DNA of 5,441 nucleotides from Nitrospirales bacterium (GTDB taxonomy: Bacteria; Nitrospirota; Nitrospiria; Nitrospirales; UBA8639): contig JAJDBO010000116.1 in assembly GCA_029261305.1 (NCBI GenBank), forward strand, positions 1-5,441, given 5' to 3'. Positions 1 through 5,441 of this stretch are shown piece by piece. The stretch's first letter is position 1; every line of letters starts with the position of its first letter. A program made the position numbers and the translations under genes. Under the pieces are notes generated by a model. That model made no database searches. It was given only the letters and a program-made list of their open reading frames with translations, and had not been told where the DNA came from.

Positions 1-1137
1 ACGCCGCAATAAGGGAGAAGCCGTTGTAGGCGCTCCGCCCTTCACAATAAAGTGATCATCATCAAAGAAGCGAGAAGAATATTCAGGGTAGGTGGCATAA
101 GGCTGAAATCCTTGAAAAGGTCGAAATGGTGTCGAGGTCCATTCCCAACCATTCCCAACGAGCTGAGAGACTCCAAAAGCGCTATCCCCTTGCGGATAGG
201 CCGTGACTGGAACTGGATTCCAATTCTGAAAATCAAAATTTCCATGGACGCCGTTGGGCTCCTCATTGCCCCAAGGGTACTCACGTTCCTCTCCGTCCAT
301 CGAGGCATAGGCTGCACGATGAAATTGGGCTTCGGTCGGCAGCGCGAAACCAGCCCACTGAGCGTAAGCTCGAGCATCAATCAAAGACACGTACACGGGC
401 CAATGATCGGGAAGCGGTATTTCTTGAAACATGGCCAGAAGGAACCATCGCCCATCTCGTTTCACCCAAAATGGCGGAATGGGACCTCCCGCTTCAACAA
501 ATTGTAAATACTGCTGATTGGTGACTTTATGTTTGCTCATGGCAAAAGCTGGGACATCTTCTTGATGTTCACCAAATTCATTATCCCAGCCAAAGCCCTC
601 GCTACGACCAAGGGTTACCCTTCCCTCAGGAATGTCAATCATCGTATGCCGGGGTGGTGGACCTTCAGGTGACGGCGGACACGATGGCGGTATTTTCCCA
701 ACAAGGGGAGCATGGTGCAGAATATAGGCAGTGGTTTCGGCATGCATCCACCGATGCTCAATCACCATTCTGGTAATATTCTCTGGCGCTTTGGCTAACG
801 CACAGTCAACAGCATCACGAGCCTTGATATTATAGCGTTGAATTTCCTCAAGCGAGGGCCAATCAGAGGGGATATCGACTTGTGTTGATCCGACTTCAGG
901 ATCAATCCCTGCCTCAAATAATGAATCAAATGTTGGATGAAACGAGGATTGCCCCAAAGTCCACCGACAAAGCTGATTCCAATCAAACGCCTCCACATGC
1001 CCAATATAAAAAATCACACGATGGCGTTCGGGGAGAGGCCGTTCATAGAGGGCCTCTGACGAAAAGAGGGAAAAGATATGATCCATGCAGGCTCGCGCCG
1101 CAGATAATTCCTTTCGCATTTCAGACAAACTCTGCAT
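1..1137 (-). CDS. egtB: EgtB-like nonheme iron sulfoxide synthase (DinB + FGE-sulfatase domains), C-terminus cut by window edge
   Basis: The minus strand stays open from an ATG at 1137 to the left edge, giving 379 residues with no stop. Residues about 1-145 look like a DinB-like helical bundle. They carry H47 (IGHVEAF) and the HxxxHxE motif H128/H132/E134 (HRWMHAE), matching the three-histidine Fe(II) site of EgtB enzymes. Residues about 165-379 are an FGE-sulfatase fold: GFGWDNEF near 181-188, KVTNQQYLQF near 204-213, ALPTEAQF near 265-272, YPWGNEEP near 287-294 and GNGWEWT at 328-334. In this family the enzyme couples hercynine to cysteine or gamma-glutamylcysteine with O2, in the cytoplasm. 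The family is usually somewhat over 400 residues, so a few dozen C-terminal residues are probably missing. The ATG has a weak GAGTGG ribosome site six bases upstream, and an in-frame TAG at 1168-1170 limits upstream starts. It is divergent from the transporter and egtD. The related selenoneine synthase SenA is a real alternative, because residues that might discriminate lie partly off the edge. Confidence 0.88.
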   Translation of the reverse strand, partial: MQSLSEMRKELSAARACMDHIFSLFSSEALYERPLPERHRVIFYIGHVEAFDWNQLCRWTLGQSSFHPTFDSLFEAGIDPEVGSTQVDIPSDWPSLEEIQRYNIKARDAVDCALAKAPENITRMVIEHRWMHAETTAYILHHAPLVGKIPPSCPPSPEGPPPRHTMIDIPEGRVTLGRSEGFGWDNEFGEHQEDVPAFAMSKHKVTNQQYLQFVEAGGPIPPFWVKRDGRWFLLAMFQEIPLPDHWPVYVSLIDARAYAQWAGFALPTEAQFHRAAYASMDGEEREYPWGNEEPNGVHGNFDFQNWNPVPVTAYPQGDSAFGVSQLVGNGWEWTSTPFRPFQGFQPYATYPEYSSRFFDDDHFIVKGGAPTTASPLLRR

Positions 1138-1285
1138 AATTACCCACTCAACGAAGTCTTGGAAATTCTAAACAGAAAGATATTCGATACCGTAGGCACA
1201 ATTTCCCAGCAAAGCATCCATAGGCTGTGAATTGCCTGAATAGTTGTAATATATCACTAGTCAGGGTTGTCAAGAATAACTGCAC
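1138..1285. promoter_or_regulatory. Divergent intergenic control region between egtB-like and ABC transporter genes
   Basis: This 148-base gap separates two divergently transcribed units, so both promoters should lie here. The leftward promoter is clear (see its own entry). For the rightward unit I see only weak hexamers, such as CTGTGA at 1225-1230 with TAATAT at 1247-1252, 16 bases apart. An imperfect inverted repeat, TAGTnnTA-n3-TAnnACTA at 1241-1259, covers the leftward -10 and could be an operator that influences both directions. No small gene or RNA is recognisable. Confidence 0.5.
1246..1273 (-). promoter_or_regulatory. Candidate sigma70-type promoter for the egtB-like gene
   Basis: On the minus strand a perfect TTGACA (plus positions 1268-1273) is followed by a 16-base spacer and TATTAC (1246-1251), four of six matches to the -10 consensus. 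Transcription would start near 1239 and leave a leader of about 100 bases before the ATG at 1137. This is the best promoter match in the window. It is judged by eye only. Confidence 0.55.
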
Positions 1286-2038
1286 ATGAAATCACCTGTT
1301 CTCAGTATCCACCATGTGTGTAAGGAGTTTGGAAAGCAGGTTCACGCTCTTCAACACATTGATCTGGAAATTTTTCAAGGTGAAACCGTCGTCCTCATTG
1401 GGGAAAGTGGATCGGGGAAAACCACGCTCCTTCGAATGTTGAATGGATTGGATCGCCCGACTTCAGGAGAAGTTTGTATTCATGGCGAGTCAATGCACAC
1501 CCAAGATCCCATTGAGCTACGTCGCCACATGGGGTATGTCCAACAAGATGGTGGATTGTTACCCCATTGGACGGTGGAAGAGAATATTGGACTCGTCCCT
1601 CGGCTGCTCGGATGGACGGAAGTTCAACGAGCCACTCGCATACACGCTCTCCTGGAACTGATTCATCTCGATCCCGACCACTACCGCACCCGATACCCCA
1701 TCGAACTGTCTGGAGGACAACGTCAACGAGTGGCGTTTGCCAGGGCCCTCGCGGCTGACCCTGATATCATTTTGCTCGATGAACCATTTGGCGCTCTGGA
1801 TGCTATCACTCGCCACCAACTCCAAGAAGAATTTCTCGACCTCAAGCACCGCCTCAAAAAAACGATGGTCATAGTCACTCATGATATTGATGAGGCTCTG
1901 CTCCTCGGCGACCGCATCGCGGTGTTGAAGGACGGCCACCTCTTGCAAATTGGAAGCGCTACCGAACTTATTCACGCTCCAGCCCATGAATATATTTCGC
2001 AATTGCTGCTGCATCGATCCCAGAGGGGATCCTTATGA
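1286..2038 (+). CDS. ABC importer ATPase, quaternary amine/EgtV-like (OpuCA/ProV family), without CBS domains
   Basis: This 250-residue nucleotide-binding subunit powers uptake through the permease encoded next to it. All motifs are intact: Walker A GESGSGKTT at 39-47, Q-loop glutamines at 86-87, signature LSGGQRQR at 141-148, Walker B IILLDEP at 161-167, D-loop ALD at 170-172 and switch histidine H199 in THD. The stretch GYVQQDGGLLPHWTVEENI (83-101) is typical of glycine betaine/choline-type ATPases. OpuCA, OpuAA and ProV are much longer because of C-terminal regulatory CBS domains. Here the protein ends soon after the helical and switch regions, so that sensor is absent. The ATG lacks a strong ribosome site (AGGG at 1263-1266 is too far upstream), but an in-frame TAA at 1277-1279 excludes longer ATG starts. 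Its stop overlaps the next start as ATGA. The substrate is unproven: the neighbouring ergothioneine genes suggest an EgtV role, with glycine betaine or choline as the alternative. Confidence 0.9.
   Translation: MKSPVLSIHHVCKEFGKQVHALQHIDLEIFQGETVVLIGESGSGKTTLLRMLNGLDRPTSGEVCIHGESMHTQDPIELRRHMGYVQQDGGLLPHWTVEENIGLVPRLLGWTEVQRATRIHALLELIHLDPDHYRTRYPIELSGGQRQRVAFARALAADPDIILLDEPFGALDAITRHQLQEEFLDLKHRLKKTMVIVTHDIDEALLLGDRIAVLKDGHLLQIGSATELIHAPAHEYISQLLLHRSQRGSL
2024..2028 (+). promoter_or_regulatory. Ribosome binding site for the binding-protein/permease fusion
   Basis: AGGGG lies six bases before the ATG at 2035, inside the end of the ATPase gene. It favours 2035 over the adjacent ATG at 2038. 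Together with the ATGA overlap it indicates translational coupling of the two transporter subunits. Confidence 0.6.
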
Positions 2039-3612
2039 TGTTGTTGAGACGACCGGCAAACATCGGCCTGAACGCACTTCTGATTGGTTTGATATTGATG
2101 GCATGGACTACGCCGGCGTTTTCCGAAGAGGATCGCGTGATCGTGGGATCAAAGAATTTTATGGAGAACAAACTCCTGGCTGAAATTTTTGCGCAACTGA
2201 TTGAGGCTCGCACCGATCTGCACGTCGAACGGCGTTTAGGATTGGCGGGCACACAAGTCTGCTTTGAGGCACTGCGCACTGGTGCTATTGACCTCTACCC
2301 GGAATACACTGGCACCGGTCTTGTGAGCATTCTTCAACTCCCGCCGACAGGCGATTCTCGAACGGCTCTCAATACGGTTCGGGCAGAGTTTTTGAAACGT
2401 TGGGATCTGTGGTGGTTGAACCCATTGGGTTTTGAAAATTCCTACGCTCTCGCCGTGCCTCGATCACTGTCATCCAACAGTCCATTACGAACCATTTCAG
2501 ATCTTGCCAAAATTTCTTCCTCTCTGCGGGCCGGATTAGGATATGAGTTTATCGAACGTCCAGATGGACTACCTGGCCTTGCACAACAATACGGTCTCAC
2601 CTTCCACAACGTTCAAGCCATGCAACAAGCGTTGAAATACCAAGCAGCGGCAGCAGGGAAAATCGATGTGCTCAATGTATACACGACAGATGGCCGCTTA
2701 GCGGTGCATGATTTTATCGTACTCGAAGATGACCTCCATTTCTTCCCTCCTTATGAAGCGTCTGGAGTCATACGTGGCTCTACACTAAAGCAGCATCCTG
2801 AGTTGGGTGCGGTCTTAACCTTGCTCACTAATGCCTTTGACGCCACCACCATGCGGCAACTAAATTTTCGTCTTCAAGAGGGAGGAGAATCCGTCGAAGT
2901 CGTGGCACGTGATGCCTTGGCCACCCTTCAACTAGTGTCACCTGACACAGCGGCAACTAAACACATTTCAAATCATGAGGGGCTTGGCTCCTATCTATGG
3001 TCGAATCGATCATCCTTGATCAATCGAACATTCGAGCATGTCACACTTGCAGGCCTAGCGCTCATATTGGGCATTCTCCTCGCGGTTCCCTTAGGCTTAC
3101 TTCTTGAACGTCACCAATCCGTGGCAGAACTAATTATTCGAGGTATTGGCCTCACTCAAACTATCCCTTCGATTGCGCTACTCGCGTTTATGATCCCGAT
3201 GTTCGGCATTGGAATGCTCCCAGCCGTAATGGCGTTATGGATTTATTCGTTGTTTCCGATTGTCAGAAACACATTCTCCGGCCTTCGTGATGCCGCGCCT
3301 CATGCTGTAGAATCCTCTCGTGCGTTGGGCATGACCGAATGGCAAATACTCTACTGGGTACGGCTACCGCTCGCCGCTCCCGTTATTATGGCAGGCGTGC
3401 GCACGGCCGGAGTCATCACTGTCGGCACAGCCACGTTGGCAGCGTTTATTGGAGCTGGGGGTTTAGGCGTGCCTATTGTCGCGGGGTTACAAATGGCAAA
3501 CACTACAGTCATCCTTTCTGGAGCCCTACCTGCGGCGGCTCTCGCCTTAATCATTGATGGCGTGCTTGGAATGATCGAACACTGGATCCGTCCGCGTGGA
3601 TTGAAACTGTAA
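2035..3612 (+). CDS. Fused substrate-binding protein/permease of a quaternary amine (OpuC/EgtU-type) ABC importer
   Basis: This 525-residue protein combines two usually separate subunits. Residues 1-30 form a signal peptide or signal anchor with a likely cleavage after AFS. Residues about 34-300 are an OpuAC-type binding domain: VGSKNF at 37-42, GLAGTQVCFEAL at 69-80, YPEYTGTG at 88-95, YTTDGRL at 216-222 and FFPPYEASG at 236-244, all typical of glycine betaine/choline/carnitine binders and of EgtU. Residues about 330-515 form a BPD-type permease with around five hydrophobic segments (about 334-357, 368-391, 393-411, 447-474, 490-513). It has an EAA-like cytoplasmic loop, ESSRALG...LP, at 426-445 that docks the ATPase. 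The start overlaps the ATPase stop (ATGA). Known EgtU and Lactococcus OpuABC carry the binding domain after the permease; here it precedes it. Neighbouring egtB-like and egtD genes suggest ergothioneine or another betaine as substrate, by inference only. Glycine betaine or choline cannot be excluded. Confidence 0.9.
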   Translation: MMLLRRPANIGLNALLIGLILMAWTTPAFSEEDRVIVGSKNFMENKLLAEIFAQLIEARTDLHVERRLGLAGTQVCFEALRTGAIDLYPEYTGTGLVSILQLPPTGDSRTALNTVRAEFLKRWDLWWLNPLGFENSYALAVPRSLSSNSPLRTISDLAKISSSLRAGLGYEFIERPDGLPGLAQQYGLTFHNVQAMQQALKYQAAAAGKIDVLNVYTTDGRLAVHDFIVLEDDLHFFPPYEASGVIRGSTLKQHPELGAVLTLLTNAFDATTMRQLNFRLQEGGESVEVVARDALATLQLVSPDTAATKHISNHEGLGSYLWSNRSSLINRTFEHVTLAGLALILGILLAVPLGLLLERHQSVAELIIRGIGLTQTIPSIALLAFMIPMFGIGMLPAVMALWIYSLFPIVRNTFSGLRDAAPHAVESSRALGMTEWQILYWVRLPLAAPVIMAGVRTAGVITVGTATLAAFIGAGGLGVPIVAGLQMANTTVILSGALPAAALALIIDGVLGMIEHWIRPRGLKL

Positions 3613-3664
3613 TGATACCAACGGTGCAAAACGGTCATGTCCCTTCAAGGCATTGACGAGAGAA

Positions 3665-3689
3665 CCCGACAGAAAAATATCTGTCCGGG
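3665..3689 (+). terminator. Hairpin after the transporter gene, possible weak or Rho-assisted terminator
   Basis: CCCGACAGA pairs with TCTGTCCGGG around a six-base AAAATA loop, giving nine pairs with one bulged C. It starts 52 bases after the transporter stop. No T-run follows immediately, so it is not a classical intrinsic terminator. It could stabilise the 3' end of the transporter mRNA or be part of a regulatory site. Confidence 0.35.
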
Positions 3690-3691
3690 AC

Positions 3692-3722
3692 AAACAATTG
3701 TTTCTCGTACCTGTCATATAAT
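3692..3722 (+). promoter_or_regulatory. Candidate egtD promoter with overlapping palindromic operator
   Basis: A perfect TATAAT at 3717-3722 lies 13 bases after a perfect palindrome AAACAATTGTTT (3692-3703). At a normal 16-18 base spacing the -35 position falls inside the palindrome and matches TTGACA poorly. This is the layout of an activator- or repressor-controlled promoter. The predicted leader to egtD would be about 110 bases. Confidence 0.4.
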
Positions 3723-3827
3723 TTCGAACATATCTTGCACAAATGGAAACAAGCCGTTACAATTCGCCCGCTTCGGGTTTACCTCTTTTTCTCATTCATC
3801 CATCACATTTAAATCTGTACGAACGCT

Positions 3828-3832
3828 AAGGG
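3828..3832 (+). promoter_or_regulatory. Ribosome binding site of egtD
   Basis: AAGGG sits nine bases before the ATG at 3842. The next in-frame ATG (3878, residue 13) has no such site. This supports 3842 as the start. Confidence 0.55.
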
Positions 3833-3841
3833 TTCAATTTC

Positions 3842-4819
3842 ATGATCGAACAATCCAATATTATTATCGATGTCCACATGAACAATCAGGATCCCTCAAC
3901 CGTGAAAAATGAAATCCGCGAGGGCCTCCTTTCGACGCCAAAAAAACTTCCGACGAAATATTTTTATGATGATTGGGGCTCTACCCTCTTCGAACAAATC
4001 TGTGAATTGCCTGAGTACTATCAAACTCGAACCGAGCATCAATTGCTAAAATCTGTCGCGGATGAAATCGTCTCCCAAACAGGCGCAGACGAGTTAGTGG
4101 AATTAGGATCAGGCGCCGCAACCAAAACCCGAGTGTTACTAGATGCCATGGCTCGGGCGAAACAACTGAAATTCTACGTTCCCTTTGATGTCAGTGAAGG
4201 CATCGTCCGACGAGTGGCTCAAGAACTCGTTGAGGAATACGAAGGGTTAGAAGTTCACGGGGTCGTCGGTGATTTCCTCGCGCATTTGGAACATATCCCC
4301 GATGGAGGCAGACGCTTGGTGGTTATTTTAGGTGGCACTGTCGGGAATATGGGATCTGAAGCTGGCCCGGCCTTTCTGTCATCCATTTATGATGAAATGG
4401 ATCAAGGAGATTTCTTTCTTCTTGGTGCTCAACTTAAAACCGACGTCGATCGCTTAGAAGCCGCATATAATGATTCAGCAGGAGTGACCGCCGCCTTTAA
4501 CAAAAATATGTTGGTGGTTTTGAAATCTGTCATAGGAGCCGATTTTAATCAGGAGGCTTTTGAACATGTCGCCCGGTTCAATCAAGAGAAAGGCCGCATC
4601 GAAATGCACCTCCGGTCGGTTCGCGAGCAAGTGATTCCCATTCCCGAATTAGATTTAAATCTTCATCTCCAGAAAGGTGAAGAAATCCTCACCGAAATCA
4701 GCATGAAGTTTACTCGGCATCAAGTCGAAGCCTTACTGACGCGAGCTGGCTTTAGTCCTGTTGAATGGTACACTGATCCTCAAGAGCTTCATGGGCTCGC
4801 CTTAGCCAAAAAACGTTAA
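3842..4819 (+). CDS. egtD: L-histidine N-alpha-methyltransferase (EgtD), hercynine synthase
   Basis: EgtD uses three S-adenosylmethionines to convert histidine to hercynine, the first step of ergothioneine synthesis, in the cytoplasm. The 325-residue product is close to the 321 residues of the Mycobacterium smegmatis enzyme and aligns by eye with a constant offset of +3. The SAM site is present: LGSGAATKT at 88-96, D116 in FDVSEG and GDF at 143-145. The histidine-binding residues also match: Y42, Y59 (LPEYY), N169 (LGGTVGNM), Y209 (AAYNDSAGV), M255 (RIEM), E285 and S287 (LTEISMKF), corresponding to mycobacterial Tyr39, Tyr56, Asn166, Tyr206, Met252, Glu282 and Ser284. This full set separates it from generic methyltransferases of the same fold and predicts a real histidine methylase. 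The start is supported by AAGGG nine bases upstream and by the N-terminal alignment. It lies downstream of a betaine-type importer and upstream of a PLP enzyme on the same strand. Nothing appears truncated. Confidence 0.95.
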   Translation: MIEQSNIIIDVHMNNQDPSTVKNEIREGLLSTPKKLPTKYFYDDWGSTLFEQICELPEYYQTRTEHQLLKSVADEIVSQTGADELVELGSGAATKTRVLLDAMARAKQLKFYVPFDVSEGIVRRVAQELVEEYEGLEVHGVVGDFLAHLEHIPDGGRRLVVILGGTVGNMGSEAGPAFLSSIYDEMDQGDFFLLGAQLKTDVDRLEAAYNDSAGVTAAFNKNMLVVLKSVIGADFNQEAFEHVARFNQEKGRIEMHLRSVREQVIPIPELDLNLHLQKGEEILTEISMKFTRHQVEALLTRAGFSPVEWYTDPQELHGLALAKKR

Positions 4820-4940
4820 CTCGTTTTCTTCAAACATTTCTCCCATCCTCCCTTCTCCTTTTTTCTGTCTGCTTTGCTATGATGGCAGACAAAGGGCCTT
4901 TTCACTATTTTCATAATCCCACACCTCTGGGACATCTCCC
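4820..4940. other. Intergenic spacer between egtD and the class V aminotransferase gene
   Basis: This 121-base pyrimidine-rich spacer contains no terminator that I can support after egtD. Its notable contents are an inverted repeat around an extended -10 element (separate entry) and a small hairpin, TGGGA-CATC-TCCCA at 4928-4941, that covers the start region of the next gene. Read-through from egtD together with a local promoter is possible. Confidence 0.45.
4866..4891 (+). promoter_or_regulatory. Candidate extended -10 promoter inside an inverted repeat, upstream of the PLP enzyme gene
   Basis: TGTCTGC (4866-4872) and GCAGACA (4885-4891) form a perfect 7-bp inverted repeat with a 12-base centre. 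The centre holds TGCTATGAT (4875-4883), an extended -10 element with the hexamer TATGAT at 4878-4883. The -35 region is poor. A dimeric repressor site over the -10, or simply an RNA hairpin after egtD, would both fit. Confidence 0.4.
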
Positions 4941-5441
4941 ATGATCTATCTCAATTACGCTGCGCTTTCCCCAACACGTCCTGAAGCCGAGCGGGCCGTG
5001 ACCGAAACACTCAACGCATTCAACAATTATTTGTATTCAGATGCAGGCATCCAATGGTATCTGCACAAAGTCCAAGATTGCCGCCTACAAGTGGCCAGAC
5101 TCTTGAACGTCACGAATCCATCCAGCATAGCCTTTGTGTCCAATGCATCAACGGCTCACTATCTCACGATTCGATCTTTGCCATGGAAGCCTGGGGATTC
5201 TATTCTGACTACCACACATGAGAACCCTTCCATCACCCGACAACTTCGGGCGTTGAAGGATTGGGGAGTTGACATTCATCTTGTCCACCCTTCGTCGCCA
5301 GATCAATTGATCCAATCGATCACTCACACTCTGGACCAACAGTCGGTGAAGGCCATGGTCATCAGCCATGTGTCTCACGTGGATGGCAGAATTTTTCCGA
5401 TTCATGCGATTTCCACCATAGCCAAGGAACGTGGCGTCGCA
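4941..5441 (+). CDS. Class V PLP-dependent aminotransferase-fold protein, possible EgtE-type C-S lyase, C-terminus cut by window edge
   Basis: The first 167 residues of a fold-type I, class V (NifS/SufS/EgtE-like) enzyme are present; family members are commonly about 370-400 residues. The N-terminus MIYLNYAALSPTRPEA is the usual opening of this class. FVSNASTAHYLTI (65-77) is the phosphate-binding loop, THENPS (92-97) places H93 at the ring-stacking position, and SHVSHVDGRIFPI (142-154) is the next cofactor-contact segment. The segment bearing the Asp that binds the pyridine nitrogen and the Schiff-base Lys lies beyond the edge, so activity cannot be judged. The ATG is the only start candidate, since an in-frame TAA lies at 4914-4916. 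The ribosome site is weak (TGGGA at 4928-4932). Its position after egtD suggests the EgtE step, cleaving the hercynyl-cysteine sulfoxide C-S bond. This is inference; a cysteine desulfurase or an unrelated lyase is possible. Confidence 0.8.
   Translation, partial: MIYLNYAALSPTRPEAERAVTETLNAFNNYLYSDAGIQWYLHKVQDCRLQVARLLNVTNPSSIAFVSNASTAHYLTIRSLPWKPGDSILTTTHENPSITRQLRALKDWGVDIHLVHPSSPDQLIQSITHTLDQQSVKAMVISHVSHVDGRIFPIHAISTIAKERGVA

What the first reader, a model, noticed from the sequence alone, without database searches (positions are those of the whole stretch)
1..5441. Ergothioneine locus with a built-in quaternary-amine ABC importer
Seen directly: an EgtB-like iron enzyme, a two-gene OpuC/EgtU-type importer, a fully conserved EgtD and a class V PLP enzyme lie side by side. 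Established: EgtUV of Streptococcus pneumoniae and Helicobacter pylori belongs to the same transporter superfamily and imports ergothioneine, in organisms that do not make it. Inference: here synthesis and uptake genes share a locus, so the importer may take up ergothioneine, hercynine or a related betaine, for salvage or for supplying precursor.
Basis: partly seen in the sequence, partly recalled or inferred. Interest (0 to 1): 0.75.

Follow-up and report, generated by a model that had tools for sequence, protein, structure and literature searches.

The report
Ergothioneine genes with their own importer
A bacterium related to nitrite oxidisers carries, next to its genes for making the antioxidant ergothioneine, a pump of the family that takes up betaine-like molecules; similar pairings recur in other bacteria, which suggests that makers of the compound also import it or a precursor, though the cargo is untested.

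Summary
The window encodes an EgtB/OvoA-like sulfoxide synthase, an ABC ATPase, a fused binding-domain/permease importer, an EgtD above its curated cut-off and a class V PLP enzyme. The five genes keep order and orientation in all 13 close relatives among 15 loci fetched. In 395 genomes of the phylum the importer occurs in 50, EgtD in 63, both in 47; EgtD lies within 6 kb of the close importer type in 25 of 28. A split-gene version (12 loci) and a Bacteroidota version with a circularly permuted binding domain (egt run in 6 of 7) also sit beside egt genes. One clade for all three is rejected (AU p 0.006); two of three pairings are not. The EgtU label fails: in all 27 egt-linked binding domains aligned, EgtU's specificity residues G/F/Y read F/Y/F, the glycine-betaine-binder pattern. 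Best reading: a dedicated importer of ergothioneine, or less likely hercynine, with a non-EgtU pocket, by which producers recapture or salvage the molecule. Substrate, direction and purpose are inferred; an osmoprotectant importer is the main rival. New variant of a known kind.

The parts
1..1137 (-). EgtB/OvoA-like non-haem iron sulfoxide synthase, cut by the window start; putative Fe ligands H47 (997-999), H128 (754-756), H132 (742-744)
   Evidence: Pfam FGE-sulfatase 142.8 bits; NCBIfam OvoA N-term 208.9, SenA 161.9, EgtB 159.8 bits, all under cut-off; closest solved chain EgtB-IV 8vih, 6.4e-48; the three His invariant in 19 rows of window and split types and also His in the 8 other EgtB rows aligned; their role as Fe ligands is recalled
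1138..1285 (.). divergent intergenic region between the EgtB-like gene and the importer genes
   Evidence: promoter-like matches in the whole window are not above shuffles (8 found, mean 6.5, sd 2.5)
1286..2038 (+). ABC ATPase, nearest to the quaternary-amine (ProV) type
   Evidence: ABC_tran 129.2 bits; best NCBIfam model TIGR01186 proV 272 bits, under its cut-off of 326.6
2035..3612 (+). importer: N-terminal stretch (probably signal or anchor, not computed), binding domain (about 2125-2934) fused to permease domain (about 3007-3594)
   Evidence: OpuAC 192.5 bits, BPD_transp_1 75.1 bits; nearest solved chains acetylcholine/nicotine sensor precursors 222-228 bits, EgtUC 186 bits, ProX 153 bits
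2152..2160 (+). K40-N41-F42: Lys242 position kept, Gly244 position of EgtU is Phe
   Evidence: numbering from PMC9732360 section 8
2755..2757 (+). E241, acidic residue right after cage tyrosine Y240 (position 444 of EgtU); Glu or Asp in 40 of 40 rows of this type, but also in 3 of 17 other reference rows
3842..4819 (+). EgtD, L-histidine N-alpha-methyltransferase
   Evidence: TIGR03438 339.8 bits, above the 290.9 cut-off; aligns over residues 20-323 with mycobacterial EgtD, 9.4e-89
4941..5441 (+). class V PLP enzyme (cysteine-desulfurase-like), candidate C-S lyase; runs off the window
   Evidence: Aminotran_5 60.7 bits; full-length relative in L001, 361 aa: TIGR01977 143.6, SclA 124.6, EgtE TIGR04343 66.9 bits, all under cut-off

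Best explanation
The window is an ergothioneine-type locus. EgtD makes hercynine from histidine (inferred from family, strong), the EgtB/OvoA-like iron enzyme joins it to a cysteine-type thiol as a sulfoxide (inferred from family and His triad), and the class V PLP enzyme cleaves the C-S bond (inferred, weaker). The built-in ABC importer serves the same pathway: its binding domain, tethered to the permease, catches ergothioneine, or less likely hercynine, outside the inner membrane and the ATPase drives it into the cytoplasm. In a producer this would recapture ergothioneine lost from the cell and salvage what neighbours release. The pocket has the ProX-like and not the EgtU pattern, so it would be a separate solution to binding the same kind of ligand. 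Shown: gene content, linkage and its recurrence, pocket residues. Inferred: substrate, direction (import, from the family) and purpose.
For: Five-gene block in the 13 close relatives among 15 loci. In 395 genomes, both hits at E 1e-20: both genes 47, importer only 3, EgtD only 16, neither 329; hypergeometric 2.6e-43, not corrected for kinship. Importer 60% or more identical: EgtD in 28 of 28 genomes, within 6 kb in 25 of 28. Split type: 12 loci beside EgtD; in 7 of these 12 EgtB-EgtD-ATPase-permease-binding protein lie on one strand. Bacteroidota type: EgtD-EgtB-ATPase-permease/binding domain in one run in 6 of 7, genes overlapping or under 90 bases apart by mechanical ORFs; importer (E under 1e-100) in 7 of 148 genomes of that order, all 7 with EgtD, which is in 33 of 148 (37 at E 0.001, the 4 weakest dropped). 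One clade for all three is rejected (AU p 0.006). Of the three importers in genomes without EgtD, two sit beside MTTB-type quaternary-amine methyltransferases and one beside a distant EgtD-like protein: the importer goes with an enzyme of quaternary-amine metabolism, and in egt loci the evident candidates are hercynine and ergothioneine (inference). The nearest solved relatives of the Bacteroidota importer are EgtUC chains (200 bits, wild type 196, against 176 for the best sensor chain).
Against: The three EgtU specificity positions are not met in any of 27 egt-linked rows; G244F weakened pneumococcal EgtU about 100-fold for ergothioneine, though it also destabilised it (PMC9732360 section 9). 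The F/Y/F pattern is also that of 14 of 17 reference rows with no known egt link. The window's binding domain scores higher against choline/nicotine-type sensor precursors than against EgtUC. The split type has Phe and Asn at two cage positions (4 of 4 rows). In 4 of 6 genomes of the phylum tested it is the only OpuAC-type domain, so a general osmoprotectant role is possible. 16 EgtD genomes of the phylum and 26 of 33 in the Bacteroidota order lack it, so the pathway does without it; none of the 19 such Bacteroidota loci read shows it within 6.5 kb of EgtD. Window plus Bacteroidota and split plus Bacteroidota as one clade are not rejected (p 0.115 and 0.102). No binding or transport data.
Confidence: 0.55

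Rival explanations
1. The importer is an ordinary osmoprotectant (glycine betaine/choline/carnitine) importer; the pairing with egt genes reflects shared stress regulation or a shared saline niche, not a shared molecule.
For: F/Y/F pocket as described for glycine-betaine-binding ProX (PMC9732360 section 8); best solved hits are acetylcholine/nicotine sensor precursors; only OpuAC-type domain in 4 of 6 genomes tested; EgtU (OpuF) of two Bacillus species can rescue osmoprotection at high concentrations (PMC9732360 section 14).
Against: Only 3 of 332 genomes of the phylum without EgtD carry it; operon-like runs with egt genes in three architectures. Niche was not tested.
Confidence: 0.25
2. The importer brings in hercynine (or another histidine betaine) as a precursor, so that the sulfoxide synthase can be fed without EgtD.
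For: Importer and pathway enzymes co-occur; pneumococcal EgtU disfavours hercynine about 10,000-fold (PMC9732360 section 12) and some of its pocket residues are changed here.
Against: EgtD is present in 47 of 50 importer genomes, so hercynine can be made; nothing here distinguishes the two ligands.
Confidence: 0.13
3. The end product is not ergothioneine but a related thio- or seleno-histidine, and the importer matches that product.
For: The EgtB-like enzyme scores best with OvoA and falls under every curated cut-off; solved relatives include the selenoxide synthase OvsA and SenA; the PLP enzyme's second-best model is selenocysteine lyase SclA, under cut-off.
Against: An EgtD above its cut-off is adjacent; no SenB- or SelD-like gene was seen among the window genes and the flanking genes scanned, a limited set.
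Confidence: 0.07

Closest known systems
EgtU of Streptococcus pneumoniae and other Firmicutes (EgtUA/EgtUBC; PMC9732360)
   Same: two-gene ABC importer with fused permease and binding domain; positions Lys242, Thr275, Thr296, Asn339, Tyr341, Glu375, Arg379, Tyr419, Tyr443 kept in the window
   Different: binding domain N-terminal instead of C-terminal; G244/F293/Y337 are F/Y/F and I243 is N; beside ergothioneine biosynthesis genes, whereas the paper describes EgtU in bacteria unable to make ergothioneine
ProX/OpuBC/OpuCC glycine betaine and choline binding proteins
   Same: fold family; F/Y/F pattern stated for AfProX in PMC9732360 section 8
   Different: egt linkage; acidic residue after the last cage Tyr in 40 of 40 rows of this type, against 3 of 17 other reference rows
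Standard bacterial egt loci (egtB-egtD, e.g. plasmid loci L175, L177-L179)
   Same: EgtD and a sulfoxide synthase gene close together
   Different: no such importer annotated within 7 kb there; here a divergent EgtB-like gene, an importer and a class V PLP enzyme
EgtB-IV sulfoxide synthase (solved entries 8vih and relatives)
   Same: closest solved relative of the EgtB-like protein, 6.4e-48
   Different: window protein falls under all NCBIfam equivalog cut-offs

Membership tests
EgtU ergothioneine importer | G244, F293, Y337 (specificity positions) | tested here: not met
   F, Y, F in 40/40 window-type (17 with egt context, 23 without known context), 4/4 split-type, 6/6 Bacteroidota rows; G, F, Y in 5/5 EgtU reference rows, which I picked by that motif; only L130 of them was checked against solved EgtUC, 463.6 bits
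EgtU ergothioneine importer | carboxylate and cage residues K242, T296, N339, Y341, E375, R379, Y419, Y443 | tested here: met
   all kept in the window; Y341 in 39/40 rows of its type, the others in 40/40; most are shared with non-EgtU reference rows
EgtU ergothioneine importer | falls in the EgtU clade | tested here: not met
   EgtU rows form their own clade (100/100) without it; the two are neighbours with support 87/73, and holding just the two together gives p-AU 0.057
EgtU ergothioneine importer | high-affinity ergothioneine binding and uptake | not testable with these tools
   -
Quaternary-amine ABC importer (F-III type binding domain) | OpuAC binding domain with aromatic cage, permease and ATPase | tested here: met
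EgtD histidine methyltransferase | score above the curated equivalog cut-off | tested here: met
   339.8 against 290.9 bits
EgtB (TIGR03440) | score above the curated equivalog cut-off | tested here: not met
   159.8 against 360 bits
EgtB/OvoA sulfoxide synthase superfamily | three-His iron site | tested here: met
   H47, H128, H132 invariant in 19 rows and His in eight other EgtB rows; role as Fe ligands recalled
EgtE C-S lyase (TIGR04343) | score above the curated equivalog cut-off | tested here: not met
   66.9 against 400 bits for the full-length relative in L001

The most novel reading that the evidence does not exclude
Ergothioneine producers in at least two phyla have recruited, more than once, quaternary-amine importers into their egt operons, and these form new classes of ergothioneine/hercynine importer that bind the ligand with a ProX-like pocket instead of the EgtU one; making and recapturing the molecule are one genetic unit.
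Probability: 0.5. Interest if true: 0.7.

Novelty: new variant of a known kind. Interest (0 to 1): 0.55.

Why it matters
The bacterial ergothioneine importer paper read here (PMC9732360) describes uptake by bacteria that do not make the compound. If producers carry dedicated importers, the molecule must be worth retrieving, which bears on whether ergothioneine is a private redox buffer, a leaked product or a shared good in microbial communities. It also gives a test set for how binding pockets reach ergothioneine specificity by different residues. Importers 74-91% identical to the Bacteroidota one are listed under Chryseobacterium and Flavobacterium names, so cultured hosts probably exist; the egt neighbourhood of those named strains was not looked at.

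Tried and rejected
Selenoneine or ovothiol locus: considered because the iron enzyme scores best with OvoA, has OvsA and SenA among its relatives, and the PLP enzyme's second-best model is a selenocysteine lyase; set low because an EgtD is adjacent and no SenB- or SelD-like gene was seen among the neighbours scanned. Membership in EgtU: rejected on residues and clade. Single egt-importer clade: rejected for all three types (p 0.006) and for window plus split type (p 0.031), not for the other two pairings. Promoters and terminators: not above shuffles; Rfam: no match at gathering threshold. Gemmatirosa plasmid importer (51% identical): no egt hit in the 19 kb stretch, though an EgtD lies elsewhere on that replicon. 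Synechocystis plasmid importer: no egt gene annotated beside it. A second phylum through the locus labelled Nitrospinota (L011): its genome is drawn with the same phylum as L001, so searches added no independent group.

Papers: nine searches of the held PMC library (listings capped at 15 of 22, 15 of 26 and 12 of 20) listed no paper whose title or shown abstract start reports an importer inside an ergothioneine biosynthesis locus. This is no proof of absence. Seen: PMC9732360 abstract, sections 8, 9, 12, 14 and passages of others including 13; passages of PMC12689799 and PMC13348415 (its ergothioneine genes are in a Burkholderiaceae genome). The H. pylori importer paper is not held.

Limits: of 26 importer-less EgtD genomes in the Bacteroidota order 19 were read. 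Of 52 plasmid records with EgtD, 5 were seen with annotation; L176 has none and was not scanned for the importer, contrary to my note. Pocket and tree work used 4 of the 12 adjacent split-type loci, and 23 (table) and 6 (tree) of 120 listed window-type proteins. L009 and L013 were left out as copies of L074 and L076, L003 and L073 as truncated. Several loci of the window type lack a piece (see full report).
Full report
Observation. The window holds five genes: an EgtB/OvoA-like iron enzyme on the minus strand, then on the plus strand an ABC ATPase, a fused binding-domain/permease protein, EgtD and a class V PLP enzyme. The ATPase and fusion genes overlap by 4 bases. EgtD passes its curated cut-off (339.8 against 290.9 bits). 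The iron enzyme passes none: OvoA N-terminal 208.9, SenA 161.9, EgtB 159.8 bits; its closest solved relative is EgtB-IV. Three histidines matching the recalled iron site are invariant in 19 rows. The PLP enzyme, read in full in L001, scores best with TIGR01977 (143.6 bits), then SclA (124.6); EgtE 66.9; all under cut-off.

Linkage. A scan of one genome per species gave 15 loci. In the 13 with 72-91% identical importers, all titled Nitrospirota-type or Nitrospinota, the five genes lie in the same order and orientation. The genome titled Nitrospinota (L011) is drawn with the same phylum as the others. Of the other two, L014 (Gordonibacillus) has no egt hit in its stretch and no EgtD in its genome, and L015 (Flavobacteriaceae) has EgtD, a standard EgtB (547.6 bits), the importer, a PatB-type C-S lyase and a Crp-like protein in one run.

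Co-occurrence. In 395 genomes of the phylum, at E 1e-20, the binding domain occurs in 50 and EgtD in 63; 47 have both, 3 the importer alone, 16 EgtD alone, 329 neither. A first draw of 198, partly the same genomes, gave 18 (importer, E below 1e-50), 21 (EgtD, E 0.001) and 17 (both). The probabilities (6.9e-20 and 2.6e-43) ignore kinship. By identity of the binding domain: 28 at 60% or more, EgtD in the genome in 28, within 6 kb in 25; 16 at 38-43%, EgtD in 13, within 6 kb in 12; 7 under 37%, EgtD in the genome in 7, within 6 kb in 0. The three window-type exceptions are G137 and G577 (other contigs) and G587 (about 80 kb away). The block is not always complete: G193, G462 and G530 show no EgtB-like gene in the stretch read, G498 neither EgtB-like nor PLP, G416 no PLP, and in G512 the importer gene is broken into pieces.

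Three architectures. Window type: fused, binding domain first. Split type: permease and binding protein in different reading frames by the coordinates, in the 12 loci beside EgtD; EgtB-like 52-56% identical to the window's in the five loci where measured, EgtD 37-38% in the four measured; 7 of 12 all on one strand (L064, L239-L242, L244, L246), 5 convergent (L061-L063, L243, L245). The 38-43% class also holds importers of other layout: G170 has permease and binding domain in one frame. Bacteroidota type: permease first, binding domain circularly permuted in 7 of 7 loci, EgtD-EgtB-ATPase-fusion in one run in 6 of 7; in the seventh (G275) the importer ends at its contig edge and EgtD is on another contig. 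A PatB-type lyase follows in 3 of these 6. Close EgtD/EgtB relatives (L180-L183) lack the importer.

Phylogeny. On a 55-row tree of binding domains each type is one clade (99-100 support), and the types are apart. Forcing all three together is rejected (p 0.006), window plus split also (p 0.031); window plus Bacteroidota (0.115) and split plus Bacteroidota (0.102) are not. The window type sits near EgtU with weak support (87/73). The groups were named before the tree, but reference sampling is small and long branches are flagged. The iron enzymes of window and split types group together, far from standard EgtB, so pathway genes and importers have partly different histories.

Pocket. The EgtU reference L130 matches solved EgtUC with 463.6 bits. 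At the EgtU positions G244, F293 and Y337 the rows read F, Y, F in 40 of 40 window-type (17 with egt context including the window, 23 database proteins without), 4 of 4 split-type and 6 of 6 Bacteroidota rows, and also in 14 of 17 other reference rows. Most other ligand residues are kept. Window-type rows have Glu or Asp after the last cage Tyr (40 of 40), split-type too (4 of 4), Bacteroidota type Tyr or Phe; 3 of 17 reference rows are acidic there as well. Split-type rows have Phe and Asn at two cage positions. This argues against an EgtU pocket. It does not exclude ergothioneine: the EgtU paper cites H. pylori importers of the wider cluster that contribute to ergothioneine uptake with lower affinity (PMC9732360 section 13, passage seen).

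What the exceptions say. Of the three importer genomes without EgtD, G582 and G186 have the importer beside an MTTB-type methyltransferase and a weak cobalamin-dependent methionine synthase activation-domain match, and G546 beside a distant EgtD-like methyltransferase (59.2 bits) and an MNIO-type iron enzyme. Importers of this family thus seem to travel with enzymes that handle a quaternary amine, and in egt loci the evident candidates are hercynine and ergothioneine. This is inference from few cases.

Verdict. The pairing is real and recurrent; the importer most likely serves ergothioneine or hercynine; a plain osmoprotectant importer remains the main rival because of the pocket. Why a producer would import is open; PMC12689799 (passages) cites suggested active ergothioneine secretion in M. 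smegmatis, which would make recapture useful. Cargo and purpose need the bench tests listed.

Noticed in passing
L015 8010-9578 and L068-L073: The binding domain of the Bacteroidota importer is circularly permuted: its second half precedes its first half, after the permease, in 7 of 7 loci.
   Followed up: partly
L247 942-6899: In genome G546 the importer lies beside a distant EgtD-like methyltransferase (59.2 bits) and an MNIO-type iron enzyme (ApyH model 96 bits, under cut-off): possibly another histidine-betaine pathway.
   Followed up: partly
L248 2251-4453 and L249 13428-15592: Importer of the same family beside an MTTB-type methyltransferase and a weak Met_synt_B12 match, in two genomes without EgtD.
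   Followed up: partly
L001 13797-14711 (cluster c6): A glutamate formimidoyltransferase (FtcD, identified in L001) family member lies downstream of the block in 11 of 13 loci.
   Followed up: no
L002 1793-3595 and L001 14932-15459: A sodium/solute symporter family (cluster c8, 8 loci) and a DsrE-like family (c7, 9 loci) are recurrent neighbours; one member of each was identified.
   Followed up: no
G001, G137, G193, G416, G452, G462, G520, G566: These genomes carry a second, lower-scoring EgtD elsewhere.
   Followed up: no
G562, G520, G161, G566, G074, G545: A distant importer (under 37% identical) occurs in six genomes, all with EgtD but not beside it; L057 and L058 (G161, G074) are fused like the window's.
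   Followed up: no
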